Positions 4,071 to 27,530 of a stretch of 29,570 bases of DNA are shown in pieces (the stretch's first letter is position 1; every line of letters begins with the position of its first letter). A model generated the notes under the pieces. It was given only the letters and a program-made list of their open reading frames with translations. It searched no databases and was not told where the DNA came from. A program made the position numbers and the translations under genes. Origin of the DNA: Saccoglossus kowalevskii (taxonomy: Eukaryota; Hemichordata; Enteropneusta; Harrimaniidae); assembly GCF_000003605.2 (NCBI RefSeq), contig NW_003133377.1:4015-33584 (forward strand). The letters are read 5' to 3'.

Positions 4071-7000
4071 ATGTCGTTTTACATGTCTTCCCAGGATTGC
4101 AAGCAATCTATATCTATATACACATACACCATTGAGGGACTGCTCAGACAGATGATTGGACCAGAGACGAGCGAAACGGAGGCAGTTGTAAGATGGCCGC
4201 CACCGTCCTCTAACGCCAGGAGCGAAGATATCATTGAAACAAAACTTCTAGCCCAAGGGCAGCAACTATACGACGGCTCTACACAATCTAAGGAGTTTGT
4301 AGCCATAAAGCTGTCATTGTACAAGGTAGGGTCTAAGGTCCGAAGCTAATTCCGCTTCACATCCGCCCGTGATATGTTAACGCCCTCTACCGACGAACAT
4401 TTCTGTGACATCACAATGCCGTAGATTGTTTTCATCAAGAGATATAGAATTTTACAAATACTTTCGCGTATTTAGCTGATAAATAAGTGCACTGAATTAA
4501 AACTCAGGAAGTAGGCAAAATTAATAATTCAATATATTTCTTTCACAAACAATTGAATTTAAAATCTATAGTGAATGTCCATGCAACGCGCCAAACCCAC
4601 TCAGAATTAAACCCAGTGAATATTCTTCACTCTACTGTATTCGTGCAGGAAACACCATAAAACAGAGGGGTGTTGTGAGGGCGTAGCCCAAAACAACTAC
4701 TAGTATCCGATGTTCCGTGGTGTTCGTTACGTATACACTGGAATTTAATTTAAGCTTTAATTTAATTTGCAAGGTCAACATCATTTCTCCATCAACAAAC
4801 CATTCATATCTATAAGCATTATTCTGTTTTGCTTCGAAGTGTATATTTTTTGTCATTTTTTTTACCCTGAATACACCATCCAAAACAATCAAACCACAAT
4901 TCAAATATACCAGTATTGTTTGATCCACATAGAAAAAGGAAGTCATTTATGAAGATAAAATATACCTGCGTGTATGTACCTGGATATTGCCCTCGCCATT
5001 AGCTGCCCCAGTCGCGTTGTATGTAGTGGACGACAAATCGGAGGGTGTCACAGAAACCACAGTAGATGATCTCAGAAACACAGTTGAGGCGATAGGTGCC
5101 AGTTTAGTGACCATTCCGAGACACAAAGTTACCTCTCATCCAGAAGGCGAAGTTCTGTCGGTTAGTTAATACCTGTTTATGTATAAATATATTCCTCCAA
5201 TAAGATTGGTTCAACATCATTATACCACCCACATACATTGCATGTGTGTGTTTCGACATTTTCTTCATATTTTTGAATCCATGCAGAAATGAGCTAAAAT
5301 GACCCTTGTATCAAATGAGTGCACAGATGATGATATGTCAAGTGATATTGTATATATTTATAATAATATCATGCAAATACCTGGTGGATGAATTGTTGTA
5401 ACAAATATAAATTTAATTTCCTAGGCTGATTTTTGCATATGCGATGAACATCCCTACATATTATCTAATGTATGTATATTTTGTATCACAGACGTCATAT
5501 TTGGCATGTAATGCCCCTGACCCATTTCCCATAGAAGGAGATTAATGAAACTTGGTACAGTTATTAGTCTTTCTCTACATAGGAGCCACCCAGAGTTATG
5601 TATTTCTTCTATCGTTTGATGCAGCTCTGGACACCGTTTTTGTAGAAAACCCAAGGCTGCATCATCTGGGAAACGTTTTCCTTTCAAAAACAACTTCATG
5701 GCTGGGAAAAGATGAAAGTCAGAGGAGGCAAGGTCAGGAGAGTAAGGGGGATGAGGAGGATTTCATAGCCACACGCCCATGCTTCTGATCTGGTGACATG
5801 CTATTTGTGGACCGGAGCGTTGTCCTGCAGGAGGATGATACCTTTGCTGATCTTGCCCCACCTTTTGATAACTTCTCTTAATTTCATCAAAAGTGAAGCG
5901 TAATAGGCTCCCGTAATTGGGGTACCCTTTGCCAGGAAATCTGTCATCACTACTCCGTCCTGGTCCCAGAAGAGCATGACCTTGCTAGCGGAGGGCTGCA
6001 CCCTTGCCTTCTTTGGAGGTGTGAGTCCTAGTGCTTCCACTGCATTGATTGAGCTTTGGTCTCTGGATCATAGTGATTGACCCAAGTTTCAACCTGTGTA
6101 ATTCAGAAAAACTTTGACTCATCTTCTTGGCACATCTCCAAATTCATCCTCGGGCATTCAACATGTTCTTGCTTTTGGAAAGGTGTGATCAACCTGGGAA
6201 TCCATCTGGCAGACACTTTATGCATATGCAAATGGTCATGAATGATAGTTTCCACTGACCCTGTACTAATCTTGACCTCTTGGGCTATTTGGCAAGCAGT
6301 AAATAGCTGCCTCAACTTGACGGACAGATGCCTCATCAATGGCAGAAGAGGGACGACCATGTCTGGGAGTTGTTTCCACAGACTTCATATGATGGGGCAT
6401 CATCACCTTAAGTTTCTTTCATTTCATCAAAAGTCTTTTTTGGTGTGCGTCCTTTCAAATGCAAAAACCGGATCACTGCGCGACACCCAGCTGGCTCCAT
6501 TTCACCCCTGACTCAGTTCAAACACCTGTAAATCAGAAACCACAATTAGTTCAGAGCTGTTTTTGAACATAACCCATAGAGATGTAAATCATTACACATG
6601 CAAAATTTCATCTAGAACAGACAACTGGAAGTGGGTCAGAGGCATTATTTATTTAACGCCCCTCGTAGATTATAAAATGTAAACAAAACAGCTTATGTCT
6701 CTTTAATAAAAATTCAGTTGATCATTTTACTGTTTATTTCATAGGCTTGGATGGCATGTGGGTTTACTCAGACCACAGAACAAACACAGACCATGGTGGC
6801 TGTTGCAATGCATCAAGACGAAGACAGCAAAAGAGATCTTGTGTTGGTAATGTCCAATGGAGTACTGAATTGTAAAACAATATTATCATAATGACGAATG
6901 TGATGAATTGTTGTGAATTGGTGAAAAATTCATCGCGGTTTCAAATATATAGAAACAAGATGTTTTGTCTTTGTTTTTTCTCAACAGGGTTCCCACCTGA

Positions 7001-10000
7001 ACTATTTTACTATCGGAAAGGTCTGGGGTTTTGATCGAATTATGGCAACTCCGCCTATGTATCCATATTTCCCACTGGGTGCCTTGCTGGTTTCATCACT
7101 GACTCCCGGTGGAGAAACTCCAGGGTGAGTAATGTACGTGAGTTTGTGACAATGTAGAGTTCATCAAGAATGAGTAACGTACGTGAGTGCAAGTCAATTA
7201 GAAGTTCATCCAGGTTGAGTAACATGCGCGAGTGCGTGTCAATGTGGAGTTCATCTAGAGTGAGTGCGTGTCGATGTGGAGTTCATCTAGGGTGAGTGTG
7301 TGTCGATGTGGAGTTCATCTAGGGTGAGTACGTGTCGATGTGGAGTTCATCTAGGGTGAGTGCGTGTCAATGTGGAGTTCATCTAGGGTGAGTAACATGC
7401 GTGAGTGTGTGTCAATGTGGAGTTCATCTAGGGTGAATGCGTGTCGTTGTGGAGTTCATCTAGGGTGAGTGCGTGTCGATGTGGAGTTCATCTAGGGTGA
7501 GTGCGTGTCATTTAGGAGTTTATCTAGGGTGAGTAACATGCATGAGTGCGTGTCAATGTGGAGTTCATCTAGGGTGAGTGCGTGTCGATGCGAAGTTCAT
7601 CTAGGGTGAGTGCGTGTCGATGTGGAGTTCATCTAGGGTGAGTGCGTGTCGATGTGGAGTTCATCTAGGGTGAGTGCGTGTCAATTAGGAGTTCATCTAG
7701 GGTGAGTAACATGCATGAGTGCGTGTCAATGTGGAGTTCATCTAGGGTGAGTGCGTGTCGATGCGGAGTTCATCTAGGGTGAGTGCGTGTCAATGTGGAG
7801 TTCATCTAAGGTGCCATCTTCGTCAGCCAAGGACCATTTATTCAGCCAGAGCCTGGGCCGGTCCTGAATGACCAGCCGACTTAGCAAAACCATGCGACTC
7901 GGACAATGCTAGGGTGAGTGCATGTCGATGTGGATTATTTCATCTCGGTAGGGTGAGTAACCTACGTGATTGTATGTCAATCTAGGGTTAGTAATGTATG
8001 CGAGTGCGAGTCAGTGTGGAGTTAGTCTAGGATGAGTAACATACGTTAGTGGGAGTCAATGTAGAGTTTTAGCCCCGCCTAAAGATACCATGATTTCCAC
8101 GGGCTAAATTAACAGTTCTTCATAATACCTACAAAGAGTGTGATTTTTTGCGAGTGAAGATTAAATAATAATAACTGTGATTATATGTCAGGAACTGTCT
8201 GAATATGTTTGGTAATTTGATGCTCATCGGTCAAAGACTATCCTGTCGCTTTGTTTCAGAAACTGGAAATTTGGTGATTATCCCGTGGGTTATTTGCCAC
8301 AATCCATGACCCATTTCATTAATTCACAGAAAGTCCAACCTATTGTGGAAGTCTTCACAGATTGGTTAGCAAATGGTGACATTGCTAGTGTGGTTAATTT
8401 TGTGCCAGCTACTGGACCCAGGGTAATGTTATTCACTCTAATTATGTTCCTAACAATCACACCCTCCGTCTTTCGAAAAAATGCGTATGTGATGACAAAG
8501 TGATGTAGCTGGGTGTAAGCAACAAATGCGGCAAATCTGTCAAAACGTTCATTGACGGATGTCAACAGATTAAAACAATATGGACGCTGAGGAGAGCGCG
8601 TGGTACAGCTGCATTATTTCTGCGTTGTTATGTCTACACGCAATAGTTGGGTATCTGTGGGATTGCGGAGCAGGCGAGTGGGAATATACGATTGCTATGT
8701 GTACTCTCTGCTCATCCTGTTATACTACTCTTCTAGTGCCCAGTTATCCTAATGTTCCATCTAGTTAGCCGACATCCTGTCCAGTTAGGCTACCTTGCGC
8801 CAGTTATCTGCTCTCTGATCAGTTAACCCGATCTCTGCCGTGCTAGACCACCTTCGTACAGTTAGACCCATCAATCTGTTAGCCTACTCTCTGACCAGTT
8901 AACTTACTGTCCACTCAGTTACTACTCTCCGCCAGTTATCCTGCTCTTTGACCAGTTTGCCTCTTCGCCCAGTCAGATTACTTTTCCGCAGATGGACCCA
9001 CCGACCAGTTAGCCTACTTTCCACTTAGTTAAACTACTCTCAGGCTCCACTCATCCAATCTTCTCCTCGCCCTGTCAGCCTTTTTTCATCGGGTTAGCCT
9101 GCTTTGTGTCCAGATAAACCTGCTCTCTATTCAGCTAGACTGCTCTTCGTCAAGTTATTTTACACTCTCCTCAGCCTACAATTCGCCTGTAGTTGCCCAC
9201 AATCATTACCCCCACTCTATGTGGCCTACTATTACACAACAACAACATCGTTTTAAATTGCAGGGTTTCAAGGTAGTGACACCAAGTATGTATATATGCA
9301 GAGACCTTCTATTGGACTTTAGGAAAGACGGAGAGGGATTTCTCTGTGAAGGTGTAGTTCTATTCTCGTTCTATGTTTAATTTCCTTAAATATGATGTTT
9401 GGTGGATTGTGTGATAGATTTAAAATCTATTCATATTGAGTGTGGACAGATGGGTCTTTACGGTGTGCATGTCCGTATTAGTCGATAGCCGACATCTGGC
9501 TGATCTCAAAGTTCAAAACTTTATCTCAAGTCGAAGCTAGAGTGTGGATAGTTGGAAGATGTTTTCTTGTTTGTGTGGTACGTTTCTGTTTTGTTTCCAA
9601 ATAACCAGTAACCATGTCTATTTCATTAGAGTCACACTGTATTTACCATTCACACGCAGGCAAGACATTGAATGGAATTGACGCGTCGATAAAAGTGTCT
9701 AATATTCTCGCCGACAGAGAATTTTGGAAAATGAACCAGCATTTTCAGGTAGGTATGAAAACATGCATTATGGATAAGAAAGGCAATTGTCCTACTGCTG
9801 CAAGTTTTCATTCATATTGCACTTTTAAACTTGCCTGTACTTTAGTTTAGTTTAGTTTATAAATATATAACAATTTGTAAACACCGATAATCAGCTTTTA
9901 TTCAAATTCAAATATTTAATATTGATTGGTTCAAGAGCTCAACATTGTCTACGACCATAATTGCGCGCGCGAGCATACAAGCGTCATAGAAACTGCGACC

Positions 10001-12900
10001 GCCCACTCAAAATGAAGGGCTTGCTGATTGGATGATGTTGAAGTATACGTAGCTCATTGATATTAATTAGAGCTCGTGGTGAGCTCGCCATGATTCTGAA
10101 TTTTACCTGTCATTTTGATTTAAGAAAAAATGAATTTATATAACGTTCATAACATTCCCAGTTGGGAACACCGATTTAAACAATGGCAGACACACATATA
10201 TACACACGTATATATTTTAAAGGAAATTGTTTGTTCATATAAAATTCGAATTCGCACTGCACAATGACAGTGGTGCTGTATTGATGAAAGCGGCTAACAC
10301 ACTTATGAGACACAAGTTTTCTTAAAATCTTAATATTTGAAGGGCAGAAGCAAGGAATCGGGATTAACTTTTGCATTATGATCGCAGTTGTATGTATTCA
10401 ACTGTATGGCCAATTTTTAACTCAAAATAGGCACCATAATAACCGAACATCACCGAACTGGTCCGTTGGTTAAATTGTGATTAAATTTTCAGCATCTTAG
10501 GGGGTCGTCAAGTCATCGCCGAATTGTATATGGCACAGGATTATCTGTTCAGCGATAGAAGGTGGACTATATTACAAATTCGATGTGAGGCATTTTCCAT
10601 TAAGATTAGTCTGAGATGCACACCAGATTTTTGACTCGGAGTTGTTTCCTGAATAACCATTCTGTTATAACAGAATATAGACGTTTAGGACCTCCGACAA
10701 GCAGAAAGGTTATGTTTTGCCTGCGTACGTTTGTTTGTTTGTCTGCTTATTTGACTTTAACCAGGATAGCGCAACGAGTTATAATAGATGAATTTTCGTA
10801 GTTTTCAAGAGGGTTGCCTTTGACCTCCGGTCGTCATGGAGACGGCAATTACGGGAATTATTTTTTATTTATCACCCAAAAGACATGGATTTCATTGGAT
10901 TTTCCATTGCATGTTGGAGATGCGGGTTGTCATGGGTACAGCAATTGTTGGATTTTGTGGTTTTCATTTAAAACTCGAAAACTTTGAGAAGGGGTTTCCT
11001 TTGGATACAAGTACCAATCGATTATATTTTGATATGAATGCGGATTTGGTTGCCATGGAAACAAAAATTTTGGGAATGATTGATAGATTTTCATGACATT
11101 TTTAGTAGGGTACCAATCAGTAATAGATTGGTTGAGATCTGGATCTCGATGCGATGAAAACAAAAATGTGTTCAAAGACTATTCGTAAAAAAGTAAATGA
11201 AAAACATATTGTGTTTTTAAGTAAGAGTTGTCCTTCAAACATTAACCAAGTATTAGACGGATTAGATACGAAAAGAAATTACTAGTAGTAGCTTTTGTGA
11301 ATATGATATATGTATCATTAGGGTAGCGGTATGAGTGCGGATATGTAATTTGCATTCTTATTGCGGAGGTTTGCGTTTTCTGGGTGCCTAGTTTTACTAA
11401 TTTTATCATTGCGCCCGAACTTCGAAAATTACATACTCCCCAGGTTAGTTGTATTTAGTGTGCACTTATTTGAACCGCAATGCATGACGGGATTGATAGT
11501 AGTGGTGACAATGAACAAATCGCGCGATACGTCAGGTTTTTGTCAGTTTAACTCATGAATTCCGAAACTTTCAGATTTGAGCTTCGGGGGTTTCAACGCG
11601 AGCATACAAGTTTTGCCGACACTACAACTTTACAACGCTTTCACCCTGCAATATGATATGCAATATGATATGATAAGAATCTGTCGTGTTTTAAATTTTC
11701 TTACTGAATTACTTAGCCGCGACAACCCTTAAAGTGTTTCGTTTGGCTTTTACATTTTATATATTTTATTGTTTTTTGCAGAGCTTTATCGATTTCAACA
11801 GAAAAACTCTTCGAAGGCAGTTAGGATTACAAACAGACGATTTTATTGAGCTTCCGGCGTTGTGGCAGCGATGTAAAGGTGACAAAATGCGGGCAGTGCC
11901 GTTCTTTCCCAATATGACATCTATGATGTGCCTTGGCGATAATATAAGTACGTAAACAATAAGTGTTCCTCTGTTTAAAAGGTGGTGGTCGTCGCACCGC
12001 GTCCTGTTCGATATAGGCGCCAATGCGACGTATACAACGCGTGTAAAATACAGTGTTTGGTTACACGAAATTCAATGGCGCACGGGACGGCCAGAGTAAA
12101 ATGAGCGTCTCATTGAGAGGAAGGATGAATTGAAACAATCAAATTCCCGAGGTTTGAATCCGCTTAAACAATGGTGAAAGATCGGCGTCCACCGCCGCCG
12201 CCGAAACACCAATATTTGCGCGACGATGTAACTGGGAGGGTAGAATTCAGTGTTTCGCTTAATCCGGTAAGAATTACACATGGCTAGAATCACACAAAAA
12301 TACACTTGGGGATATAAAACTATAGAACTGAAAAAAGAGCGGGCACGGTTTCTGATTGTAAAAATTCATAGCACCCACCCACCCCATGACGCATATTTGT
12401 GTTAAAGCGGGGGAGTCGTCACCTGCGCATGAGTCAGATGGCCATAGCGTGTCATTGTTTACAAACAAGCGTCTACCCATGAGCCTTTGTGTTTTTAGCG
12501 TGTGTTGTTATCGTCGCTTGGGACTCAATTCCCAGGCGTGCGCAGGTGACAACCCTCCCGCTTTAAATCATATCCAAACTACACCTTCTGCACAAATAAC
12601 GGTGCACATGTGTTATCCCGGCAATTATAAATAATTGTGGTTTTGTTTTAATTTTCAGTCATTCCAAAACCTCATGGACCGAAAAGAAAATATCAAACGT
12701 TGGACAGATTCGAAAAATACACCTCAGATGAATTCAAATCAAACAGAGTCACTGCAAATGTACAATTCGTTGACGACTGGCAGCGGTATTTTGACAGTCG
12801 CCGGGAATCCAGATCGTACAGAAGCTCACTGTCAAGCCACGTTCTTGTGCAACGCCGACCCGGTTCGAGTCCAGCTTGGTGGGAAATTGAGATGAGCTAA
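4071..12900 (+). CDS. PAD-like gene 1: spliced peptidylarginine deiminase homologue, predicted inactive
   Basis: This is the span of nine recognised exons: 4095-4325, 4933-5160, 6745-6846, 6988-7124, 8260-8422, 9264-9351, 9660-9748, 11782-11947 and 12659-12900. They join in frame to 481 residues plus stop. The product covers the second half of the PAD middle domain and the whole C-terminal deiminase-type domain. Landmarks are the segment before the catalytic domain (residues 78-100, YEDKIYLRV then WILPSP), DWLANGDIAS (267-276), FIDFNRKTLRRQLGL, PFFPN and a C-terminal WW (475-476). Active PADs convert protein arginine to citrulline with Ca2+. Here the PAD4 Asp350, His471, Asp473 and Cys645 positions read Ala154, Asp273, Ala275 and His462 (or Ser461). 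No PAD_N exon was found, so the gene is either 5'-incomplete in my reading or truncated. An in-frame ATG at 4071, upstream of the first acceptor, could be an alternative start. All frames are open and intron phases match gene 2, which argues against simple decay. Confidence 0.88.
4095..4325 (+). CDS. PAD-like gene 1, first recognised exon (PAD middle domain)
   Basis: A strong acceptor (pyrimidine tract ending TTCCCAG at 4094) and donor GTAGGG. It encodes 77 residues, phase 0 at both ends. SISIYTYT and RQMIGPE align with CVYIYRKN and ERLLGPG of the corresponding gene 2 exon. The frame extends upstream past the acceptor to an ATG at 4071, so an unspliced start here is possible. Confidence 0.8.
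4933..5160 (+). CDS. PAD-like gene 1, exon joining middle and catalytic domains
   Basis: 76 codons, phase 0-0, after TAG at 4930-4932 and before donor GTTAGT. Residues VIYEDKIYLRV then WILPSP match the vertebrate PAD pattern of FxDSVxFRVAPWIMTP, and match YKDSIQLRASPFIIP of gene 2 with the same exon offset. The last codons, GEVLS, fall just before the position of PAD Asp350. Confidence 0.85.
5511..6645 (-). mobile_element. Degenerate mariner (Tc1/mariner, DD34D) element
   Basis: A 1135-bp element flanked by TA dinucleotides (5509-5510 and 6646-6647). Imperfect terminal inverted repeats read ATGCCCCTGACCCAT at the left and GTGGGTCAGAGGCAT at the right. The minus strand carries a broken transposase. 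The N-terminal start is MEPAGCRAVIRFLHLKGRTP near 6499. Next come a helix-turn-helix stretch (CQIAQEVKISTGSVETIIHD), a catalytic part with FWDQDG, LLQDNAPVHK and YSPDLASSDFHLFP, and a C-terminal LKGKRFPDDAAL region. The three catalytic Asp positions are recognisable, but stops, frame changes and a missing segment between the N-terminal helices show it is dead. It sits inside the intron of gene 1 between 5160 and 6745. Confidence 0.93.
6745..6846 (+). CDS. PAD-like gene 1, exon at the Asp350 position
   Basis: 34 codons, phase 0-0, acceptor TTTCATAG, donor GTAATG. The product starts AWMACGFTQTTEQTQT. Aligned with vertebrate QDEMEIGYIQAPHK, the Met, Gly, aromatic residue and Gln are shared. The Asp350 position is Ala and the next (Glu351) is Trp. 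The Arg374 substrate-contact region is only loosely retained as DSKRDL. Confidence 0.87.
6988..7124 (+). CDS. PAD-like gene 1, exon with FPLG motif
   Basis: 45 codons plus two bases (ends phase 2). Acceptor TCTCAACAG; donor is GG followed by GTGAGT. KVWGFDRIMATPPMYP then FPLGALLVSS matches the PAD stretch SLDSFGNLEVSPPV then YPLGRIL. The donor sequence is the apparent seed of the minisatellite that follows. Confidence 0.86.
7125..8065 (+). repeat. 32-bp minisatellite beginning at a splice donor
   Basis: About 20 recognisable units, mainly 32 bp, with longer variants of about 44 bp carrying GAGTAACATGCATGAGT. The typical unit contains GTGTCGATGTGGAG, TTCATCTAGG and GTGAGTGC. The array starts exactly at the donor of the preceding exon, and most units repeat AGGGTGAGT, a near-perfect 5' splice site. 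A unique stretch of roughly 100 bp interrupts it near 7810-7908, and degenerate units continue to about 8065. Confidence 0.95.
8260..8422 (+). CDS. PAD-like gene 1, exon at the His471/Asp473 positions
   Basis: One base plus 54 codons. Acceptor TTGTTTCAG, donor GTAATG. QKVQPIVEVFTDWLANGDIA then SVVNFVPATG aligns with vertebrate [20 protein letters not shown] then EFLSFVPAPD. The catalytic His becomes Asp and the catalytic Asp becomes Ala, while the DWL and NFVP framework is kept. Confidence 0.93.
8735..9185. repeat. Degenerate array of CCAGTTAgCCtactctctg-like units
   Basis: Roughly 20 diverged units of about 20-25 bp sharing (C/T)CAGTTA followed by a C/T-rich run such as CCTACTCTCT. The array fills much of the intron between the exons ending at 8422 and starting at 9264. 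Unit length varies, so boundaries are approximate. Confidence 0.75.
9264..9351 (+). CDS. PAD-like gene 1, GFK exon
   Basis: 29 codons plus one base. Acceptor AAATTGCAG, donor GTGTAG. GFKVVTPSMYICRDLLLDFR matches vertebrate KGFRLLLASPRSCYKLFQEQ, and ends in FLCEG like ALLFEG of PAD. Confidence 0.88.
9660..9748 (+). CDS. PAD-like gene 1, exon with ILADREF
   Basis: Two bases plus 29 codons. Acceptor CACACGCAG, donor GTAGGT. KVSNILADREFWKMNQHFQ corresponds to PAD IKNILSNKTLREHNSFVERC and to the NHLLDVKYNRWIWQDSQYFQ exon of gene 2. Confidence 0.88.
9749..11781. other. Large intron of gene 1
   Basis: About 2 kb. Between about 10800 and 11110 a loosely repeated motif built around GTTGCCATGGAAAC recurs (near 10832, 10928 and 11049), spaced about 100 bp. 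The sequence CGCGAGCATACAAG occurs near 9968 and again near 11597. Short TTTAG tandems lie near 9842. No further exon was recognised. Confidence 0.55.
11049..11062. promoter_or_regulatory. RFX X-box-like palindrome
   Basis: GTTGCCATGGAAAC matches the canonical X-box bound by RFX factors. A second palindromic match, GTTTCCATGGAAAC, lies at 20960-20973 in an intron of gene 2. Being inside introns and within a degenerate repeat, functional use is uncertain. Confidence 0.3.
11782..11947 (+). CDS. PAD-like gene 1, exon with PFFPN motif
   Basis: 166 bp (55 codons plus one base), the same length as its gene 2 counterpart. Acceptor TTTTTTGCAG, donor GTACGT. FIDFNRKTLRRQLGL, DDFIELPALWQ and AVPFFPNMTSMMCLGDN match vertebrate CIDWNRELLKRELGL, DIIDIPQLF and AFFPNMVNMLVLGK closely. 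This is the best-conserved exon of the gene. Confidence 0.96.
12171..12266 (+). other. Possible cryptic or alternative exon in an intron of gene 1
   Basis: An ATG in strong context (A at -3, G at +4) opens 32 codons reading MVKDRRPPPPPKHQY then LRDDVTGRVEFSVSLNP, and ends exactly at a GTAAGA donor-like site. It sits in the last intron of gene 1 and does not belong to the PAD fold. It could be an alternative first exon, a repeat fragment or chance. I do not recognise a family. Confidence 0.2.
12406..12562 (+). mobile_element. TTAA-flanked MITE, copy 1
   Basis: 157 bp between TTAA sites at 12402-12405 and 12563-12566. Inverted ends are AGCGGGGGAGTCGTCACCTG and its near-complement ending CCCTCCCGCT. 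The inner part holds GTTTACAAACAAGCGTCTAC. The TTAA target duplication suggests piggyBac-type mobilisation. There is no coding capacity. It lies in the last intron of gene 1. Confidence 0.9.
12659..12900 (+). CDS. PAD-like gene 1, terminal exon
   Basis: Two bases plus 79 codons and TAA. Acceptor AATTTTCAG. IPKPHGPKRKYQTL matches PAD GIPKPFGP, and TANVQFVDDWQRYF matches LQCTFINDFFTYH. The end, VLVQRRPGSSPAWWEIEMS, aligns with [20 protein letters not shown]. The position of catalytic Cys645 is His (Ser one residue earlier), so no cysteine is available. The conserved RR and WW remain. Confidence 0.93.
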
Positions 12901-13104
12901 ACCCACCTTTATTCCGATATTTGACGCTGTGTTCTGCACCTCGCTGGGGGGGGGGGTATGTTTGGGTCATTCGGTTGATGAAATCACAATAGACTTTTCA
13001 TATAACTTAAAGGCAAAGCCCAGCATGATAATACCATGAACCAACACACAAGTCATTCACTACTGAACCTTCCATTGGTCTGAGTGCACAACCCCTTTAA
13101 GTGT

Positions 13105-13154: not shown

Positions 13155-13560
13155 TGCCTACTTCAAAAACACGGCAGTATGTGAAATGCTTTGTCTCTTC
13201 GCCTGTCCTTCGACATGGAGTTGAGCTCAAACCGTGGTGCTTGAACATAACCAAAATTTTAATAGTCACAGAAAACTGCAATTCACCTAGACTATAACAT
13301 TTTGCATTGAAATAATCAGAATACTTCCAAGGTTAGCTCTATTTAGTGCGCATGAATGGAAACATGTACTTTGTATTACGTGTTTTATAAATTGTAAAAG
13401 TTTATGATAAAGGGTGGCTGGAAGGCGATTTGAGATTGTGGGTTCTGCTTTATTTTACATTTTACTAAATTCCCTATAGCGAATATTCTTTGAATGTAAC
13501 ATGAATGTGATCATTTATTACTACTGCATGTGTACAGAACTGTGTTGGTAGGTACATTAA

Positions 13561-13713
13561 AGCGGGAAGGTCGTCACCTGCGCACGCGCGGAAATTGAGT
13601 CCCGAGCGATGATGATAACAACACACGCTAAAAAGGCTTATGGGTAGACGCTTGTTTGTAAACAATGACACGCCATGGCAATCTAACGCATGCGCAGGTG
13701 ACGACACCCCGCT
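13561..13713 (-). mobile_element. TTAA-flanked MITE, copy 2 (inverted orientation)
   Basis: 153 bp between TTAA at 13557-13560 and 13714-13717. Same family as copy 1 but reversed: the GTAGACGCTTGTTTGTAAAC core reads in the opposite sense. Terminal AGCGGGAAGGTCGTCACCTG pairs with the right end CAGGTGACGACACCCCGCT. Confidence 0.9.
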
Positions 13714-14007: not shown

Positions 14008-14046
14008 ATTTGTTATTAACAGGAACGCCTTGCATCATAGACGACC

Positions 14047-17207: not shown

Positions 17208-17735
17208 TAGTATAATCAATCTGAGATGCGACCCATCTGACTCGAGTTATTATTTGATACAGACCCATCTGACACAAGTTATTGTCAGATATAGACCCCA
17301 CTGACTCGAGTTATGGTCAGATATAGACCCCTCTGACACGAGTTATTGTCAGATATAGACCCCACTGACTCAAGTTATTGTCAGATATAGACCCCACTGA
17401 CTCGAGTTATTGTCAGATATAGACCCCTCTGACACGAGTTATTGTCAGATATAGACCCCACTGACTGGAGTTATTGTCAGATATAGACCCCACTGACTCG
17501 AGTTATTGTCAGATAGACCCCACTGACTTGAGTTATGGTCAGATATAGACCCCTCTGACACGAGTTATTGTCAGATATAGACCCCACTGACTCGAGTTAT
17601 TGTCAGATATAGACCCCACTGACTCGAGTTATTGTCAGATATAGACCCCACTGACTGGAGTTATTGTAAGATACAAAGACCTTTGACTCGAATTATTGTT
17701 GGATACAGAACCCAGATCAGTTAAGCTATTCCCAA
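17208..17735. repeat. 32-bp minisatellite in the intergenic region
   Basis: About 15-16 units with consensus AGACCCCACTGACTCGAG plus TTATTGTCAGATAT. Two unit types alternate: CACTGACTCGAG and CTCTGACACGAG. Some units carry private variants (TTATGG, GACTGG) that recur at multi-unit spacing. The right-hand units decay after about 17650. Confidence 0.95.
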
Positions 17736-18347
17736 GTATGAGACACACTGAGTACAATTATTCACAGATACATAACCACTTTTGTTCAGATCTACCCGTG
17801 GCTACTGGAGTTATATCCTCTTACCAACCATGGGGGTCAGTATAATTATCCCAAAATCTACCCTCGACGCCAGGTGTTTTAGAACAAACAAACAAAATAC
17901 TCATTCATGGACAATATAATAAACTCTTACTATCGACTTTTGGAAATATCAAAACATAAATCAGACATTTACTTCGAATCACCCCCACGCTTACATAGAA
18001 CACTGTGTGTTATAGTCAGAAACATAATACTTCACTGAATTCCAACCTTACTGTAATTTCACGGTAGAAGTGTTCGATGAATTGACTCGGATTTCGTGAT
18101 TGTGACTCACTATGAGCTATGACGTGACAAAGTAAGCTAGAGGCGGGATTACATCGACTACGACTGAAAAAAAAAACCACAATAGACGAGGGGTTACAAA
18201 CAACAATAGACACATTCCGATCGATCACTATTGCCACGATATGATTTAATTGAAATAACCAGTGGGTTCACTTCAACTATTCAAGTTATTGTCTTTCGTT
18301 TGTTTTGCAGCTCGAGTTGTTTTGCTCGGCACCAACAACAAATAAAG

Positions 18348-18395
18348 ATGGGCGCTGGAGTTTCGGTTAAGAAGACCAGCACGGTCTTATTTAAG
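18348..18395 (+). CDS. PAD-like gene 2, exon 1 with N-myristoylation-type start
   Basis: The ATG at 18348 has A at -3 and G at +4. It encodes MGAGVSVKKTSTVLFK, phase 0 at donor GTAAGG. Gly2 followed by Ala, Gly, Val, Ser6 and two lysines fits the N-myristoyltransferase pattern. A likely acceptor (TTTGTTTTGCAG ending at 18310) just upstream suggests a separate 5' untranslated exon. Confidence 0.75.
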
Positions 18396-21300: not shown

Positions 21301-24300
21301 TATTCAACGCGTCGAAAACATCCGGATTACCCGCCAGGCACGACATATGCTGAAATGAGCGTGAGGAAGATACAAGAGGCACGTCGTCAACGTAAATATA
21401 TGACTAAATGTCTCATAAGGTCACGTGGTCCGAGACCATCGGGAGGATGGTCTTTACACCTGGCATTCCCCGACAAGGTAAATTTGATTTTCGATACTTC
21501 CTTAAACGCAAAAATAGATCCAGATATTTCAACGAATTATAATTACATATAAGCTGTTGAATATGGCGGAAATGCTGAATGTCGGAACGTTCTCAAAACA
21601 TATTACACCAATCTCATACAGAGCAAACAAACGAACAGGGACAAAACACCAACCAAAATATAATGATCGCTACCAGTCGAAATCATTACACGGATCGCAC
21701 TCACACACAGTCTAAACAATTAAACTACAAAACTAGTTCGAATAAATTATTGTACCAATTTCAGCAAAAGTTCAAGCAAAGCAGAGCACCAATAACAGAC
21801 AGTCTCAAAATAACGCATTGCGCCATTCCCACTCAGTTCAAATAAAGAAACGCGCATGATCAGACAGTTCGAATAACACACCACCCTAATACGTATAGGT
21901 GCAAAAAGCGCCGAAAAAAATCGAGTTAATTAGTCCCAAGTTACTCACAAACAGCGAATACACGCGTGAAACCCTTGGAGTGTGTATTATCATTGTCTGG
22001 GTAGGTAATGAATGCTCTTTTATCAATGCGCTTTTACTATATCACCAATCAAATCAGAAGGTATACTGGGGATAATTAGAAGTAGTGTATTATCATATCG
22101 CTCGTACTACTCCACTACGTCACGGTCTACATTATCCCTGATAGTATATTGCTTACAAAGAGCCCCCTAAGTAAACGTCGATTTGTTCGTTCGTGCCATA
22201 TAACACTTCACAATTATATATAATTATGAGTGAAAGCATGAGTGCGTTGGCCGACATTCCATGGTTCTTAGCTAACAAAATCAATCAATCAAAAAACACA
22301 ACACTTTGACGAAGAAGGGCATTATGTACACACGTTTCTGTTTATTGCCAATCACAGGAATCGCAGAGATGCGTCTATATATACAGAAAGAATCCACTCC
22401 AGGAAGAAAACGAACGACTTCTAGGTCCAGGGATTATCAAAATGGAAACTGTAGATATCAAATTCCCACAACGTTCCGAAATACCTCTATGGCTTAAAGG
22501 GCTTCCGCGTACTATGGGCGAAGGACATGGCGTATTTTCTATCGATATGATACTAAAATATGTGAGATTAAAACATATACGCATTGTTTTTTTTTCTTCT
22601 TCTGGGTTCAAGTAGTGATTTTACTTTAAAGCTGGCAGTCCTCATTTGCGCATGCGGCAGACGTGTGGTAGACGCTTATTTGTAAACTACGACACGCTAT
22701 GACCGTCTGGCGCACGCGCAGGTGACGGCTCTCCCCGCTTTAAATACTTTGAAATAAACCACGCTGTTTTCAAGAAAGTACTAAGAAATATTCGTTATCA
22801 AAAGAATTTCACACATTATATTGTCATACATGATTGCACCCGTCATTGTGCACGAAATATACTATATTTCTCGCAGGATTTGACCAGATAATGTATGTCT
22901 AATCTGATTTCGCTTTACACCTGGTCTTTTTTCACTTAAAGCGGGGGAGTCGTCACCTACGCAGGCATCAGATGGCCATAGAGTTTCACTGTTTACAAAC
23001 AAGCGTCTACCCATGGGCCTTTGTGTTTTTAGGCGTGTGTTGTTATCGTCGCTTGGGACTTAATTCCCGCGCGTGCGCATGTGACGACCCTCCCGCTGAA
23101 TATTCATTCAGTAATTAAATACGCTTTTGTCGCGTGACGAAGACCGATTGTGGTGTAATGGGTGAAAGTTTTGATTCGTAGTCGTGTGTCAACAAAAGAA
23201 AAATAATGTTTTTGTGAGATTTACCAAGAGAGTTGTCGTTTTAGGCAACATATATATTGCTTACAACTAACTATGTCATTGTGACGTCACCAAAACGCCG
23301 TATCGCCAGAGGGCGCAACGGGCAAGGTACTAAGGCGTATTCCCATTCATAACTGCTTATCTAATATTGACAGCATGGCATCGCAGCATATAAGGACAGC
23401 ATACAACTTCGCGCCTCTCCATTCATCATCCCTTCATCAACCGAAGCAGCTGTTAATATATTCATTGACACGGGGCCAGGCAATACACAACTCATTAATA
23501 CCCTTTCAAGGATCGCGGAAGGAAAAACGGATCTTAATGTCGTTCAATACTCTGACGAAATGAACGATAGCCTCCAGGTATGCTAATTTATTTACATAGT
23601 TTAGTTATCGAAATGGAAATAAATCAACATAAATTATGAATTCAATGAGTTGTGAAACTATTTCCTCAACAAGTTTCTGGTCAATTTTGTTTCAAAACTT
23701 TCTTTTAAATAGTCATTAAAATTGTGCTTGTATTTTGATTCGAAGAGCATAATTTTAACTGATTTGTGCGATTGCTAGAGATCTGAATATTGTTATGAAC
23801 CTAAATATTTTGTTTATAATTTATATAATATAATATAATATAATGTACACATTGTTTTTCACATATTTTCAAATACATTATTGGGCAAATATATTCTATA
23901 AATCCGACATCTTTCATTAATTGCAACATATTGGTATTATGGACAACCCGTAGGTGATTGATATCAACAAAGTATTTCTAACTGTTATTTGCTAACATTA
24001 TATTTAATAGGGGCATATGCTGTTTGGGTATACACAAACTCCAACGCAAACACTACCAGTAGTGTTTGTGACGTCCGCAGAACTACTCAAATATTCAACT
24101 ATAATACAGAATAATCTGGTGAGTTTGTTTTCGTGCAATATAGAATAGAATAGAACATTTTTGCGTTAGTGTTTTGATATTTAAAACCACTTTTTGTGGT
24201 ATAGTTTGAGCAGTGTAACGTCAACACTGTCTAAATAAAAAAAAGCTAAAATTATAATTTTAGAGTTCCGATCGGTCATTAACTAGGGATTTATTTTTAC

Positions 24301-27300
24301 TGAGTTTTACGAATAAATAAATGCTACCACCATTTGGTGATAATTATATTTACCAGTCACGCGAACATTTATTACATATATTCAAATACGTAGAATATAT
24401 AGTCATTGAACAATCATTCCAATTTATGACAGGAGTATTTGCAATTGGAAAGCGAAGACCGTAGTTATTGTTTTCATTGTTGTCTTGCAGACGGAAGACA
24501 CTCAAATTTGTCACTGCCACGATGCGTGTAACACGATGCATCCATTGGTTGCCATGCCTTCAACCCCTCCCCGGTATCCCCTAGGATGTATACTTATCAA
24601 AGAGGATGAAATTAATTGGTAAGAATTGTTAAATGTGAAATTTCAAGCATTGCTAGTAGCTGATATGTTTTACAATTGGACGATGTTTTGCTACCATATG
24701 ATTTCACGTCACCAACATATACAGCGATGTGTTATCAGTCACCAACATTTATAGCGATATGATATCACATCACCAACATATACGGCGATATGATATCACG
24801 TCACCCGCATATACGGCGCTACGATATCACGTCACCAACATATACGGCGTTACGATATCACGTCACCGACATATACAGCGATAAGATATCCCGTCACCAA
24901 CATATACAGCGATATGATAACACGTCACCAGCATATATAGCGATATGATATCACGTAACCAACGTATATAGCGATATGATATCACGTCGCCAACATATAC
25001 AGCGATATGATATAACGTCACCAACATATACAGCGATATATCACGTCACCAACATATATAGCGATATGATATCACGTCACCAACATATACAGCGATACGA
25101 TATCACGTCACCAACATATATAGCGATATGATATCACGTCACCAACATATACAGCGATATGATATCACGTCACCAACATGTACAACGATATGATATTACG
25201 TCACCGACATATACAGCGATATGATATCACGTTACCAAAGTATATAGCGATACGATAACATGTCACTAACATAGGAAACAATATATCATTTCACCAACAT
25301 ATGTTGATTTCATATACTAACTGTTTGTCCGCTCCACGTCTCAATTTAAAGCGGTGTGTGGTTCAGGAAGTTACTGAGGAGACAGAAAGTGCAACCAATT
25401 ATTCAAATACCATTGGATTGGATGAAAAAGCCAAGCATGACATCAATAATCAACTTTGTACAATCACCAAGAGAAAACCACGAAAAGGTAAAAAAGTGAT
25501 GCGGGCAGTTGCATTTTATACGAAACACTCGACCGCTCTGGGGAAATATTGGTATACCTTTGACAAATCACGCCATGTAATGTGAATGGCGACACGACAC
25601 AAAGACCGCTCAAAATATTGGTCTGTAGACGTCCATCAATGAAAACTATGTTTTTTGAGCGATTTTACAATATTCGTGAAGACGAACAGCGGTCGATTTA
25701 AACGCCATTGTCTTCACCAATATACGTGTTTTTGACGGGAGCACTCTGGCACGGATATGAAATCGCAGTATATCAATATTTATCATAATTGTATGTCATA
25801 TTTCTACAGGGCTTTAAGGTTATTATATCAAGTACAAAACAAGCATTTACAATACTCAAACATTTACAAGACAGCGGTAGAGGAGATACAAGAATTTTTG
25901 AAGGTATAAAAAGTGTTGATTTTGACGTACGGTATGCGTATTGCCGCGTGTTAGAAATGATATGATTGGTACTTTATTTTCACGTGCTAGCTTTGCTGTG
26001 TTTGGACGCATTCTCACGTGATCGCTTACGCATATTTTGTAATGCTATCTTGGCAGGTAAATTTCGTGGGAGAGAATCAGCCACGATTACAGTGAACCAT
26101 CTGTTGGATGTGAAATACAACAGGTGGATCTGGCAAGACAGTCAATATTTTCAGGTAGAATATTTACGTTAATATTACTCTAAATAAAAGGAGGAGACAC
26201 AAATACTATGTGCATAGCTGGTAGACATGTTTACACCATTGTAGTTGATACGATGCCAAATATTACAACACTGTATTTGATATACTATATTTAATATATT
26301 ACATCATTACAGTTGATATACTGCACCAAATAGTTACACCGTTATAGTTGATATACGATGCCAAATATATTACACCACTACAGTTGTAGCCTGACAAGGT
26401 CGCGTGAGTTGCGCCCTCCGCGGTGCTTCAAACCAACACATGCCGTTCGGTCGGCGAGGGCGCCGCTCACGTCTACATGCCAGGCTACTGCAGTTGATAT
26501 GCTATAATAAATAGTATATTGCATCATTACAGTTGATATACTACACTATAATTCTTGGTATATCGGGGTAGGATCCAGTGGCGGAAAATCAACGATGTTA
26601 GGGACTCCGAGTCTAGTTAAGATTCTACTAAGAGGTCTTTTGTGTTTTATTCCCAGCACTTCATTGATGATATTAAAAGGATTCTCGTAGAAAAAATGGA
26701 TCTGAAACCAAATGATTTTCTTGAAGTACCTATGATGTGGATGAGATCTGAAATTAATCCAAAAAAGGCAGTGCCGTATTTTCCAAACCCTGTAAATATG
26801 ATAATTTTGGATAAACACGCAGGTAAGAAAACAGCAGTGCAGTTCATAAATGACGTCACTGAGTATTACGTAATGGATTAATTATTCGTTTAGGTTGTTC
26901 GATTCAAAGAAATTATTTAGTAAACACAAACTGTCGTGGCATTAGAATCACTTTGCATAGGCGTTGTAATAGCAGCACACTTCCTTCGGATTTTACAACA
27001 AATCCTTGAACAAAAAAACATCGAAATAACACAGTTTTGGGTTCGTATCATCCTATCGTCTGCGCGCGTTGTCCGCATTCAACCAGTTTCGCTGCGCATG
27101 GACATGGAAAGCTTTCTATGTGTATGTCAGTTATATTTCTTACGAAACAAAACTTGTGTTGTGTCACGTTTGGATTCATCCAAAAAAATGCAAATATAAG
27201 CTTTGTATTTACGAGCAACCGAGTTAGGAAATCAAATCAAAATTCGATAAGAAAATTCTGTAAATAAGTAATAGAATCTCTGACATAGTTGTATTTTTGT

Positions 27301-27530
27301 TACAAGTCGTACCAAGACTGTTCGGTCCCGTGGTGAAAGGAATGGATATGTTCGAAGACTTTGTTCAAGAACAGTTGCACTCCCAGACGGTGGTTCGATT
27401 GGTACACTTTGTGGACGTGTGGAACACTGAGATCCACGATATTGATAGCACAGTGACAGTACAGAGGCACACACCATTGCCGTACAAATGGTGGAATATG
27501 AATGTCAAAGAACCGTATCAAAAAGTCTGA
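18348..27530 (+). CDS. PAD-like gene 2: full-length peptidylarginine deiminase homologue, predicted inactive
   Basis: Thirteen coding exons join in frame: 18348-18395, 19598-19990, 20401-20538, 21241-21477, 22358-22561, 23374-23577, 24011-24118, 24491-24618, 25352 (or 25367)-25487, 25810-25903, 26057-26154, 26657-26822 and 27307-27530. The product is 725 or 720 residues, against about 665 for vertebrate PADs; the excess is mainly an N-terminal Ser/Arg/Lys-rich extension. Order: MGAGVS start, basic-serine tail (about 1-65), PAD_N (about 66-165), PAD_M with DVDADRDGVIE (177-187) and WKWG, then the C-terminal domain. Asp350, His471, Asp473 and Cys645 of PAD4 correspond to Gly409, Ser515, Thr517 and Thr700 (or Ser699). 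Calcium ligands near the active site (Glu351, Glu353, Asp369) are also replaced. The fold motifs TQTLPVVF, LDWM, YFPNPVNM and YKWWNM persist. This is a pseudoenzyme by sequence, with open frames and normal splice sites. Confidence 0.92.
19598..19990 (+). CDS. PAD-like gene 2, exon 2 (N-terminal extension and PAD_N)
   Basis: 131 codons, phase 0-0. Acceptor with a long T run ending TAAACAG, donor GTAAGT. The first part, STLSLRSRSSSLSRLSL then IKPDASKKTMTKR, is Ser/Arg/Lys-rich and looks disordered. VAVVGTTLEILLIAVAPEEA then HSFTLRTS resembles PAD_N (CVLGTLTQLDI then TSFSINAS). The rest is beta-strand rich, as expected for this immunoglobulin/cupredoxin-like domain. Confidence 0.88.
20401..20538 (+). 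CDS. PAD-like gene 2, exon 3 with acidic calcium-site motif
   Basis: 46 codons, phase 0-0, acceptor ATTGCCACAG, donor GTGAGA. ISLDVDADRDGVIEKD is nearly identical to the PAD1-3 stretch ISLDVDADRDGVVEKN. The four ligands of the PAD2 Ca6 site (Asp123, Asp125, Asp127, Glu131) are all present. This is the strongest single match to vertebrate PADs in the N-terminal half. Confidence 0.95.
20960..20973. promoter_or_regulatory. RFX X-box-like palindrome in gene 2 intron
   Basis: GTTTCCATGGAAAC is a perfect 14-bp palindrome and matches the RFX X-box consensus. See the related site at 11049-11062. Intronic enhancer use would be speculative. Confidence 0.3.
21241..21477 (+). CDS. PAD-like gene 2, exon 4 (PAD_M start)
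   Basis: 79 codons, phase 0-0, acceptor AAAAATTTAG, donor GTAAAT. NSWKWGYLNDGAIVITDF matches PAD ASWTWGPEGQGAILLVNC. The PAD Ca3-5 ligand motif NCDRD is not kept (DFGHY here, with PAD4 Asp155 and Asp157 positions Gly and Tyr). Confidence 0.92.
22358..22561 (+). CDS. PAD-like gene 2, exon 5
   Basis: 68 codons, phase 0-0, acceptor CCAATCACAG, donor GTGAGA. ESQRCVYIYRKN and ERLLGPGIIKMETVDIKFPQ correspond to PAD DKVRVFQATRGK and VVLGPKWPSHYLMV, and to exon 4095-4325 of gene 1. Confidence 0.88.
22630..22738 (-). mobile_element. TTAA-flanked MITE, copy 3 (internally deleted)
   Basis: 109 bp between TTAA at 22626-22629 and 22739-22742. It keeps the GTAGACGCTTATTTGTAAAC core and the right end CGCAGGTGACGGCTCTCCCC, but lacks about 45 bp of the left half. 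Same orientation as copy 2. Confidence 0.85.
22940..23096 (+). mobile_element. TTAA-flanked MITE, copy 4
   Basis: 157 bp, closely similar to copy 1 and in the same orientation. TTAA is intact on the left (22936-22939) and mutated to TGAA on the right. It sits in the same intron of gene 2 as copy 3, about 200 bp away. Confidence 0.9.
23374..23577 (+). CDS. PAD-like gene 2, exon 6
   Basis: 68 codons, phase 0-0, acceptor ATTGACAG, donor GTATGC. AAYKDSIQLRASPFIIPSST matches PAD VVFQDSVVFRVAPWIMTPNT. It ends MNDSLQ, immediately before the Asp350 position. The offset from exon start equals that of exon 4933-5160 in gene 1. Confidence 0.92.
24011..24118 (+). CDS. PAD-like gene 2, exon 7 at the Asp350 position
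   Basis: 36 codons, phase 0-0, acceptor TATTTAATAG, donor GTGAGT. HMLFGYTQTPTQTLPVVF aligns almost residue for residue with vertebrate EMEIGYIQAPHKTLPVVF. The catalytic Asp350 is Gly409, Glu351 is His, Glu353 is Leu, Asp369 is Val, and Arg372 and Arg374 are Ala and Leu. Confidence 0.95.
24491..24618 (+). CDS. PAD-like gene 2, exon 8 with YPLG motif
   Basis: 42 codons plus two bases. Acceptor TGTCTTGCAG, donor GTAAGA. MHPLVAMPSTPPRYPLGCIL matches PAD FGNLEVSPPV then YPLGRIL. The phase 2 end matches gene 1 exon 6988-7124. The start is unusually Cys/His-rich (CHCHDAC). Confidence 0.9.
24695..25295. repeat. 31-bp minisatellite in gene 2 intron
   Basis: About 19 units with consensus CATATACAGCGATATGATAT plus CACGTCACCAA. 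It fills most of the intron before exon 9. This is the intron homologous to the gene 1 intron that holds the 32-bp splice-donor minisatellite, but the unit sequences are unrelated. Confidence 0.95.
25352..25487 (+). CDS. PAD-like gene 2, exon 9 at the His471/Asp473 positions
   Basis: RRQKVQPIIQIPLDWMKKPS then MTSIINFVQSP matches gene 1 NSQKVQPIVEVFTDWLANGD then IASVVNFVPAT. The His471 and Asp473 positions are Ser515 and Thr517. Two acceptors fit the frame: AAAG at 25351 and GTTCAG at 25366. The second gives a Trp at the junction, as in gene 1. Compared with gene 1 the exon lacks roughly a dozen N-terminal codons. Donor GTAAAA. Confidence 0.87.
25810..25903 (+). CDS. PAD-like gene 2, exon 10 (GFK exon)
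   Basis: 31 codons plus one base, acceptor TTTCTACAG, donor GTATAA. GFKVIISSTKQAFTILKHLQ and TRIFEG match PAD GFRLLLASPRSCYKLFQEQQ and ALLFEG. Confidence 0.9.
26057..26154 (+). CDS. PAD-like gene 2, exon 11
   Basis: Two bases plus 32 codons, acceptor TCTTGGCAG, donor GTAGAA. ITVNHLLDVKYNRWIWQDSQ corresponds to PAD IKNILSNKTLREHNSFVERC and to exon 9660-9748 of gene 1. Confidence 0.88.
26225..26545. repeat. Degenerate ACAGTTGATATAC repeat
   Basis: A low-copy, AT-rich array with units such as TTACACCATTACAGTTGATA followed by TACGATGCCAAATA, about 35-45 bp each. It is interrupted by a GC-rich insertion at 26387-26487. Confidence 0.75.
26387..26487. mobile_element. Short GC-rich palindromic MITE, possibly hAT-type
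   Basis: About 101 bp with terminal inverted repeats TAGCCTGACA and TGCCAGGCTA. Inner complementary segments are GTGAGTTGCGCCCTCCGC and GCGAGGGCGCCGCTCAC. Flanks CTACAGTTG and CTGCAGTTG look like an 8-9 bp target duplication with one mismatch, which would suit a hAT element. The surrounding array already repeats CAGTTGATAT, so the flank match may be pre-existing. Confidence 0.7.
26657..26822 (+). CDS. PAD-like gene 2, exon 12 with YFPN motif
   Basis: 166 bp, identical in length to gene 1 exon 11782-11947. Acceptor TTATTCCCAG, donor GTAAGA. FIDDIKRILVEKMDL, DFLEVPMMW and AVPYFPNPVNMIILDKHAG match PAD CIDWNRELLKRELGL and AFFPNMVNMLVLGKHLG. Confidence 0.96.
27307..27530 (+). CDS. PAD-like gene 2, terminal exon
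   Basis: Two bases plus 73 codons and TGA, acceptor TTGTTACAAG. VPRLFGPVVKGMDMFEDFV, VVRLVHFVDVWNTEIHD and VTVQRHTPLPYKWWNM match PAD IPKPFGPVINGRCCLEEKV, LQCTFINDFFTYHIRHG and TNVRRKPFSFKWWNM. The catalytic Cys645 position is Thr700 (Ser699 adjacent). The protein runs nine residues past WWNM, where vertebrate PADs stop after two. Confidence 0.93.

What the first reader, a model, noticed from the sequence alone, without database searches (positions are those of the whole stretch)
4071..27530. Tandem pair of peptidylarginine deiminase homologues that both lack every catalytic residue
Both genes were spliced by hand and aligned to human PAD4 recalled as a family pattern. Seen: gene 1 has Ala/Asp/Ala/His and gene 2 has Gly/Ser/Thr/Thr at Asp350/His471/Asp473/Cys645. 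Surrounding framework motifs, exon borders and intron phases are preserved, and the joined frames are fully open. Known: these four residues are required for deimination, and mammalian PADI6 is a precedent for an inactive PAD with a structural role. Inference: the pair is an old family of pseudo-deiminases kept for a non-enzymatic function such as scaffolding, substrate shielding or regulation of an active PAD elsewhere in the genome.
Basis: partly seen in the sequence, partly recalled or inferred. Interest (0 to 1): 0.88.

Follow-up and report, generated by a model that had tools for sequence, protein, structure and literature searches.

The report
Dead deiminase pair in acorn worms
Acorn worms keep two old sister copies of the enzyme that turns protein arginine into citrulline, but every catalytic residue is gone from both, so this fold seems to survive there for a non-enzymatic, possibly membrane-anchored, job.

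Summary
The window is from the acorn worm Saccoglossus kowalevskii (database proteins P0011 and P0001). Two tandem genes encode PAD-type proteins, and both lack Asp350, His471, Asp473 and Cys645. The gene models need correcting: gene 1's exon starts at 4095, not at the ATG 4071, and its 5' exons are not found in the assembly. The same loss is seen in the orthologues found in Ptychodera flava and Glandiceps talaboti: 0 of 24 catalytic cells kept in six proteins, one of them a gap. The Ca1-Ca4 ligands tested are mostly lost, while Ca6 is kept (17 of 18 cells). Both paralogues begin MG[S/A]GVS, an N-myristoylation-type motif, and gene 1's disordered N-tail is its best-conserved stretch (22 of 30 residues identical in three species). 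Four genome searches found no third PAD. Best reading: a PAD already dead duplicated before the acorn worm families split, and both copies were kept as Ca2+-insensitive, probably membrane-tethered scaffolds. Substrate shielding or regulating an active PAD is disfavoured. PADI6 is a precedent in kind, but it keeps three of the four residues. Expression, acylation and partners are untested.

The parts
4095..4325 (+). Gene 1 internal exon (P0011 residues 258-334), phase 0 out
   Evidence: acceptor ttcccag before 4095
4933..5160 (+). Gene 1 exon, start of PAD_C
   Evidence: carries T where P0011 has P350
6745..6846 (+). Gene 1 exon; its first codon is Ala at the Asp350 position; ex-Ca1/Ca2 segment degenerate
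6988..7124 (+). Gene 1 exon (FPLG segment; Glu411 position is Met); phase 2 out
8260..8422 (+). Gene 1 exon with DWLANGDIAS: His471 is Asp, Asp473 is Ala
9264..9351 (+). Gene 1 exon, phase 1 out
9660..9748 (+). Gene 1 exon, phase 0 out
11782..11947 (+). Gene 1 exon (FFPNM framework motif), phase 1 out; best PF03068 exon of the genome scan
12659..12900 (+). Gene 1 last exon; IPKPHGP and WW framework kept, no Cys at the Cys645 loop; ends with the stop codon
18348..18395 (+). Gene 2 first coding exon MGAGVSVKKTSTVLFK: N-myristoylation-type start (my prediction; absent from P0001)
   Evidence: same start in Glandiceps P0002 and in gene 1 orthologues
19598..19990 (+). Gene 2 exon, Ser/Arg-rich tail plus PAD_N-like region
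20401..20538 (+). Gene 2 exon with SLDVDADRDGVIE, the retained Ca6 motif
21241..21477 (+). Gene 2 exon, PAD_M
22358..22561 (+). Gene 2 exon, PAD_M end
23374..23577 (+). Gene 2 exon, start of PAD_C
24011..24118 (+). Gene 2 exon; its first codon is Gly at the Asp350 position (GHMLFGY)
24491..24618 (+). Gene 2 exon (YPLG segment), phase 2 out
25352..25487 (+). Gene 2 exon with LDWMKKPSMTS: His471 is Ser, Asp473 is Thr
25810..25903 (+). Gene 2 exon, phase 1 out
26057..26154 (+). Gene 2 exon missing from database model P0001, supported by Glandiceps P0002
26657..26822 (+). Gene 2 exon (YFPNPVNM framework)
27307..27530 (+). Gene 2 last exon; no Cys at the Cys645 loop, KWWNM end

Best explanation
These are two enteropneust pseudo-deiminases. 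Shown: both are PAD homologues and both lack the whole catalytic tetrad and most tested Ca1-Ca4 ligands, in three species; one protein of each kind is predicted to keep the PAD fold. Inferred: a single PAD lost catalysis in the stem of the acorn worms, duplicated in tandem, changed fast, and was then held by purifying selection. Inferred mechanism: Met1 is removed, Gly2 is myristoylated, and the disordered tail holds a Ca2+-insensitive PAD-fold body at a membrane. There it acts as a binding or oligomerising scaffold, much as catalytically silent PADI6 does in the oocyte lattice, without deiminating anything and without binding arginine substrates in the old cleft.
For: Tetrad: 0 of 24 cells kept in six proteins (one cell a gap), against 44 of 44 in 11 intact-type relatives. 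Thirteen catalytic, cleft and Ca1-Ca4 positions invariant in the 11 relatives keep 9 of 76 cells; the 112 other invariant positions keep 340 of 654; three Ca6 positions keep 17 of 18. So the loss is aimed at catalysis and is not general decay; site-level Fisher p 0.0027.

Age: Sk1-Pf1 50% and Sk2-Gt2 46% identity. One hit of each kind was found per species, and the paralogues group together, 100/100 under two models.

Anchor: MG[S/A]GVS in 5 of 5 complete N-termini; gene 1 tail 1-30 has 22 of 30 residues identical in three species against 293 of 726 overall, and is predicted disordered (pLDDT under 50 for 1-34).

No active PAD found in the genome.
Against: Myristoylation and scaffolding are not shown by any experiment here. 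The tail window was picked after looking at 25 windows, so its p of 2e-4 is post hoc; gene 2's MG exon is my own prediction, backed only by Glandiceps. The join of the two paralogues is of long branches, which may attract; the placement of either with chordates is not resolved (AU p 0.32 and 0.10). Ptychodera gene 2 (P0003) is the loosest: longest tip, no PAD_M match, a broken Ca6 motif and a truncated record. Gene 1's first exons are not in the assembly, so its MG start rests on a database protein. The assembly held is incomplete, so a third PAD could hide. Ca5 ligands were not tested.
Confidence: 0.55

Rival explanations
1. Decaying pseudogenes: a tandem PAD pair that died and drifts without function.
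For: Catalytic residues lost; gene 1 5' exons not found in the assembly.
Against: Open frames and canonical splice sites over 22 exons. Orthologues of both copies in two other species, 39-51% identical to Saccoglossus. Framework invariants kept at 340 of 654 cells. P0011 covers 257 residues not found in the assembly, so it likely comes from a transcript or another assembly.
Confidence: 0.02
2. Regulators or substrate shields of an active PAD (dominant-negative partners or arginine-peptide binders).
For: PADs dimerise, and inactive partners could poison dimers (general knowledge). The fold is predicted to be kept.
Against: W347 and R372, which shape the substrate cleft, are absent in all six proteins as aligned. 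No other PAD was found in the genome by a PAD_C family scan, an intact amphioxus PAD or either paralogue.
Confidence: 0.1
3. Neofunctionalised enzymes: a different chemistry in the same fold, using new residues.
For: The segment around old His471 stays well conserved in gene 1 (14 of 25 columns identical). Asp stands at the His471 position in 5 of 6 proteins.
Against: No conserved nucleophile replaces Cys645 in its loop. The letters at D350, D473 and C645 vary between orthologues, which is not how a new active site would look. Conserved residues elsewhere were not searched for a new site.
Confidence: 0.1
4. Soluble scaffold without a membrane anchor: the MG start is coincidence or is not acylated, and function lies only in the PAD-fold body.
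For: PADI6, the closest functional precedent, is a cytoplasmic scaffold (PMC13060343, PMC11067741, passages); that it lacks such a motif is recalled.
Against: The motif is shared by both paralogues in all five complete N-termini, and gene 1's tail is its most conserved 30-residue window.
Confidence: 0.23

Closest known systems
PADI6 (mammalian inactive PAD; PDB 8ql0, 9fmn; mouse lattice 9xrl)
   Same: PAD fold, Ca2+ ligands lost, no deimination in the assays used; even the changes at E353 and E411 recur (PADI6 A362/M420 in PMC11402830; gene 1 has A/C/M and M/M/M). PADI6 dimers are a scaffold of the egg cytoplasmic lattice (PMC13060343, a preprint).
   Different: PADI6 keeps the catalytic Asp, His, Asp and has Ala in place of the Cys (PMC11067741, PMC11402830, passages); here all four are lost. 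PADI6 chains score lowest among the PAD types listed for both genes. The acorn worm pair has an N-myristoylation-type start.
Active-type animal PADs (human PAD1-4, amphioxus PADs such as P0119 and P0125)
   Same: PAD domains, framework motifs, Ca6 motif SLDVDADRDG.
   Different: Catalytic tetrad, cleft residues and most Ca1-Ca4 ligands lost; only 24-27% identity to amphioxus P0125 and Polyodon P0005.
Other acorn worm database entries: Ptychodera flava P0012 and P0003, Glandiceps talaboti P0013 and P0002, annotated as protein-arginine deiminases
   Same: Orthologues of gene 1 and gene 2, with the same losses.
   Different: Named as deiminases in the source; P0003 is an N-truncated isoform model.

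Membership tests
PAD homologous family (fold and descent) | PAD_C domain PF03068 above the curated cut-off | tested here: met
   160.7 and 132.5 bits against 25 for my first drafts; P0011 162.7, P0002 187.8
PAD homologous family (fold and descent) | PAD_M domain PF08527 | tested here: met
   Gene 2 39 bits; P0011 41.4 bits against 24.8; not called in the truncated P0003
PAD homologous family (fold and descent) | PAD_N domain PF08526 | tested here: inconclusive
   Met in P0011, P0012 and P0013; not called in gene 2 or P0002 by Pfam, though the gene 2 alignment to PAD2 begins at PAD2 chain residue 24
PAD homologous family (fold and descent) | PAD tertiary fold | tested here: met
   Predicted models of P0011 and P0002 match PAD structures over the full length
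Peptidylarginine deiminase enzymes (EC 3.5.3.15) | Asp350/His471/Asp473/Cys645 tetrad | tested here: not met
   0 of 24 cells in six proteins, one a gap; no Cys in the 645 loop
Peptidylarginine deiminase enzymes (EC 3.5.3.15) | Ca1 and Ca2 ligands (Q349, E353, E411; E351, D369, N373 in PAD4, PMC5445078) | tested here: not met
   Q349 kept in 1 of 6 (Sk2); E351, E353, E411, D369 and N373 in 0 of 6; S370, added from recall, in 4 of 6
Peptidylarginine deiminase enzymes (EC 3.5.3.15) | Ca5 ligands (D168, E252) | not tested
   Columns not read out
Peptidylarginine deiminase enzymes (EC 3.5.3.15) | Deiminase activity | not testable with these tools
   Needs protein assay
PADI6 orthologues | Closest to PADI6 among PADs | tested here: not met
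   PADI6 chains have the lowest scores of the PAD types listed for both genes (with draft translations); PADI6 itself was not put in the tree
N-myristoylated proteins | Met-Gly start with small residue at 3 and Ser at 6 (consensus recalled) | tested here: met
   5 of 5 complete N-termini (for four, for gene 2 of the window)
N-myristoylated proteins | Myristate on Gly2 | not testable with these tools
   Needs labelling or mass spectrometry

The most novel reading that the evidence does not exclude
Acorn worms have given up PAD-type protein citrullination altogether, yet keep the PAD fold twice. A dead, myristoyl-anchored PAD duplicated before their families split and was turned into a Ca2+-insensitive membrane scaffold pair. 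The published statement that PAD catalytic residues are conserved in all homologues, and the counting of hemichordates among citrullinating animals, would need revision.
Probability: 0.45. Interest if true: 0.76.

Novelty: new variant of a known kind. Interest (0 to 1): 0.62.

Why it matters
Saccoglossus is listed in print as one of the few invertebrates with a PADI gene, and the same paper states that all catalytic residues are fully conserved among PADI homologues (PMC8826395: abstract, sections 5 and 7, passages; the metazoans named for its residue comparison do not include Saccoglossus). If the pair is dead, the presence of a PADI gene does not imply citrullination, and hemichordates drop out of the map of citrullinating animals unless a third gene is found. 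The pair is also a second and deeper case than PADI6 of a PAD turned structural, with a candidate anchor. That makes the question 'what is the PAD fold good for without chemistry?' testable in an embryo model animal.

Tried and rejected
Rejected: a start of gene 1 at ATG 4071 (the exon begins 4095). Rejected: my first gene 2 exon 9 (25390-25576), a wrong frame that gave a spurious KHSTALGK stretch; replaced. Ruled out as an explanation: general decay. Tried: Rfam and tRNA scans of the window, no match; a bacterial-type promoter scan of 18000-18400, not meaningful here. Literature searches for prior reports: 'Saccoglossus'+'deiminase' gave 2 papers; 'deiminase'+'hemichordate'+'amphioxus' gave 0; 'arginine deiminase'/'pseudoenzyme'/'myristoyl' (20 of 77 listed) and 'citrullination'+hemichordate terms (15 of 1,025 listed) showed nothing on this in the listed rows. 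Only openly licensed papers are held, so absence in print is not shown. The VIA second look was run for gene 1's model only.

Full report
WHAT IS THERE. The window is part of the Saccoglossus kowalevskii genome: scaffold G000:C2532, bases 4015-33584, in an assembly of 572 Mb in 4830 contigs (the species follows from the proteins). The gene 2 query returned P0001, a UniRef entry of S. kowalevskii called 'Protein-arginine deiminase type-1-like', which matches the window's exons at 97-100% where the alignment stays inside the exon (two rows that run past exon ends read 84 and 88%). The gene 1 query returned P0011, 'Protein arginine deiminase-like 346' of the same species, which differs from the window in 2 of 481 residues. 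One orthologue of each gene was found in Ptychodera flava (P0012, P0003) and in Glandiceps talaboti (P0013, P0002). In each of these species both orthologues list a longest contig of the same length (50,616,078 and 27,529,565 bases), which suggests, but does not prove, that the pair is on one chromosome there too.

GENE MODELS. Gene 2 has 13 coding exons from 18348 to 27530, 725 residues, all introns GT/AG; its first exon is my prediction and is absent from P0001, but Glandiceps P0002 starts the same way. Gene 1 in the window has 9 exons from 4095 to 12900 and encodes P0011 residues 258-738. P0011 residues 1-257, carrying PAD_N and most of PAD_M, match nothing near-identical in the window or in the assembly as held (the one match there is gene 2's exon at 39%). 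The scaffold reads N for the 4014 bases upstream, which may be a gap or a withheld stretch. The database protein was therefore hardly predicted from this assembly as held, and may come from a transcript; I could not check its source. All 8 gene 1 introns in the window match a gene 2 intron in phase, 6 at the same alignment column and 2 shifted by 2 and 12 columns.

THE LOSS. In an alignment of 17 proteins (six acorn worm proteins; 11 intact-type relatives: three amphioxus, four fishes or sharks, three cyanobacteria, one Cupriavidus) the catalytic positions read: gene 1 (Saccoglossus/Ptychodera/Glandiceps) D350 A/K/K, H471 D/D/D, D473 A/T/T; gene 2 (Saccoglossus/Glandiceps/Ptychodera) D350 G/R/S, H471 S/D/D, D473 T/T/R. 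The C645 column reads S, gap, S and D, R, S, but gap placement there is uncertain; none of the six has a Cys in the 26 residues before the terminal WW, while the amphioxus and Polyodon controls do. All 11 relatives keep all four residues. W347 and R372 are also absent in all six as aligned; in gene 1 a conserved Trp stands four columns away and would fall on W347 if a four-residue deletion were assumed, in which case D350 is deleted. Of 12 Ca1-Ca4 ligand positions read, most are lost, with scattered keepers: Q349 in one of six, S370 in four, D155 in two, D157 in one, D388 in two. The Ca6 positions D123, D125 and D127 are kept in 17 of 18 cells and E131 in 6 of 6; Ptychodera gene 2 has an insertion inside the motif. 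Ca5 (D168, E252) and the Ca3 positions D165 and D176 were not read. PAD4 ligand numbers for Ca1-Ca5 are from PMC5445078 (passages with its Table 1); S370 and part of the Ca6 numbers are recalled.

NOT GENERAL DECAY. Of 128 columns invariant in the 11 relatives, each acorn worm protein keeps 51-65. Thirteen catalytic, cleft and Ca1-Ca4 columns keep 9 of 76 cells; the remaining 112, with three Ca6 columns set apart, keep 340 of 654. Nine of 13 functional sites are lost in all six proteins against 29 of 112 others (Fisher p 0.0027; the per-cell p is far smaller but cells are not independent).

HISTORY. In trees of 24 proteins the two paralogues group together, 100/100, and each orthologue trio is 100/100, under LG+F+R4 and LG+C20 by PMSF. 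The program warns that long branches meet. With one paralogue left out, the other hangs on a long branch of 1.9 to 2.4 changes per site and its place is unresolved; a clade with chordates is not rejected (AU p 0.32 without gene 2, 0.10 without gene 1). In the full C20 tree the stems are 1.15 and 1.24; that is about twice the crown depth of gene 1 (0.5-0.6), which fits a burst of change followed by constraint, while gene 2's crown is uneven (0.6 to 1.15), so the slowing is less clear there. That the families of these acorn worms split hundreds of millions of years ago is recalled, not looked up here.

THE N-TERMINUS. All five complete N-termini begin MGSGVS or MGAGVS: gene 1 of three species, gene 2 of Saccoglossus and Glandiceps; the Ptychodera gene 2 record is an N-truncated isoform. 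This fits the N-myristoylation consensus as I recall it. In gene 1, residues 1-30 are the most conserved of 25 windows (22 of 30 identical in all three species, against 293 of 726 overall; hypergeometric p 2e-4, chosen after looking), although the segment 1-34 has pLDDT under 50. None of the 10 vertebrate and cyanobacterial N-termini printed begins with Met-Gly; one of two amphioxus paralogues begins MGKCLGKL (P0119, P0120, P0131), a possible acylation signal, so anchoring may be older than the loss of catalysis.

NO ACTIVE PARTNER FOUND. Four searches of the held genome hit only this scaffold: PF03068 (3 exon matches), intact amphioxus PAD P0125 at E up to 10 (4 matches), P0011 (11 matches) and P0002 (11 matches). 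As a sensitivity check, P0002, 46% identical to gene 2, picked up 9 of its 13 exons and two gene 1 exons. An intact PAD would be expected to match amphioxus far better than these two genes, which it matched at E 0.0015 and worse. But the tool scores only its best candidates, and the assembly as held lacks even gene 1's own first exons, so absence is not proven.

MECHANISM AND RIVALS. A dead tetrad, a dead cleft and a largely dead Ca2+ switch leave the fold itself. [quoted passage not shown] I therefore favour a scaffold at a membrane, anchored through Gly2. Shown: loss of residues, conservation, motif; predicted: fold. Inferred: acylation, membrane site, scaffold role. Substrate shielding and control of an active PAD are disfavoured; a new enzymatic chemistry is not excluded but has no candidate nucleophile in the old Cys loop.

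NOVELTY. The individual genes are known to databases as PADs, and S. kowalevskii is named in PMC8826395 as having a PADI; [quoted passage not shown] I found no report of the loss in the searches. I rate it a new variant of a known kind: a pseudo-PAD lineage apparently separate from PADI6, with a deeper loss, two conserved paralogues and a candidate lipid anchor.

Noticed in passing
window 343-1704, - strand: Single-exon BTB-BACK protein gene (PF00651, PF07707). If gene 1's 5' exons lie upstream, it would sit inside a gene 1 intron on the opposite strand.
   Followed up: partly
window 7126-7813: A 32-bp minisatellite begins right after a gene 1 donor site and its unit copies the donor: 14 AGGGTGAGT in 7125-7820, 2 more at 7911 and 7950, none further off in the window. 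An array of decoy 5' splice sites that splicing must ignore.
   Followed up: partly
window 5454-6384, - strand: Broken mariner-type transposase remnant in a gene 1 intron (PF01359 in the 5801-6067 frame, no family in the other two frames scanned; 'mariner' is recalled from the motif).
   Followed up: partly
window 12410-12566, 13557-13710, 22944-23090: Copies in both orientations of a short MITE-like repeat with ends like TTAAAGCGGGGGAGTCGTCACC (and by eye).
   Followed up: no
window 17232-17714 and 24696-25273: Two more minisatellites of 32 and 31 bp, the second in gene 2's eighth intron.
   Followed up: no
P0119, P0120, P0131 (amphioxus): One of two amphioxus PAD paralogues starts MGKCLGKL, a possible myristoyl/palmitoyl signal; P0119 keeps the tetrad. 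A membrane-bound active PAD would be new to me.
   Followed up: no
P0001, P0003: Database models of gene 2 and its Ptychodera orthologue lack the N-terminal exon, and P0001 also lacks the 26057-26154 exon.
   Followed up: yes
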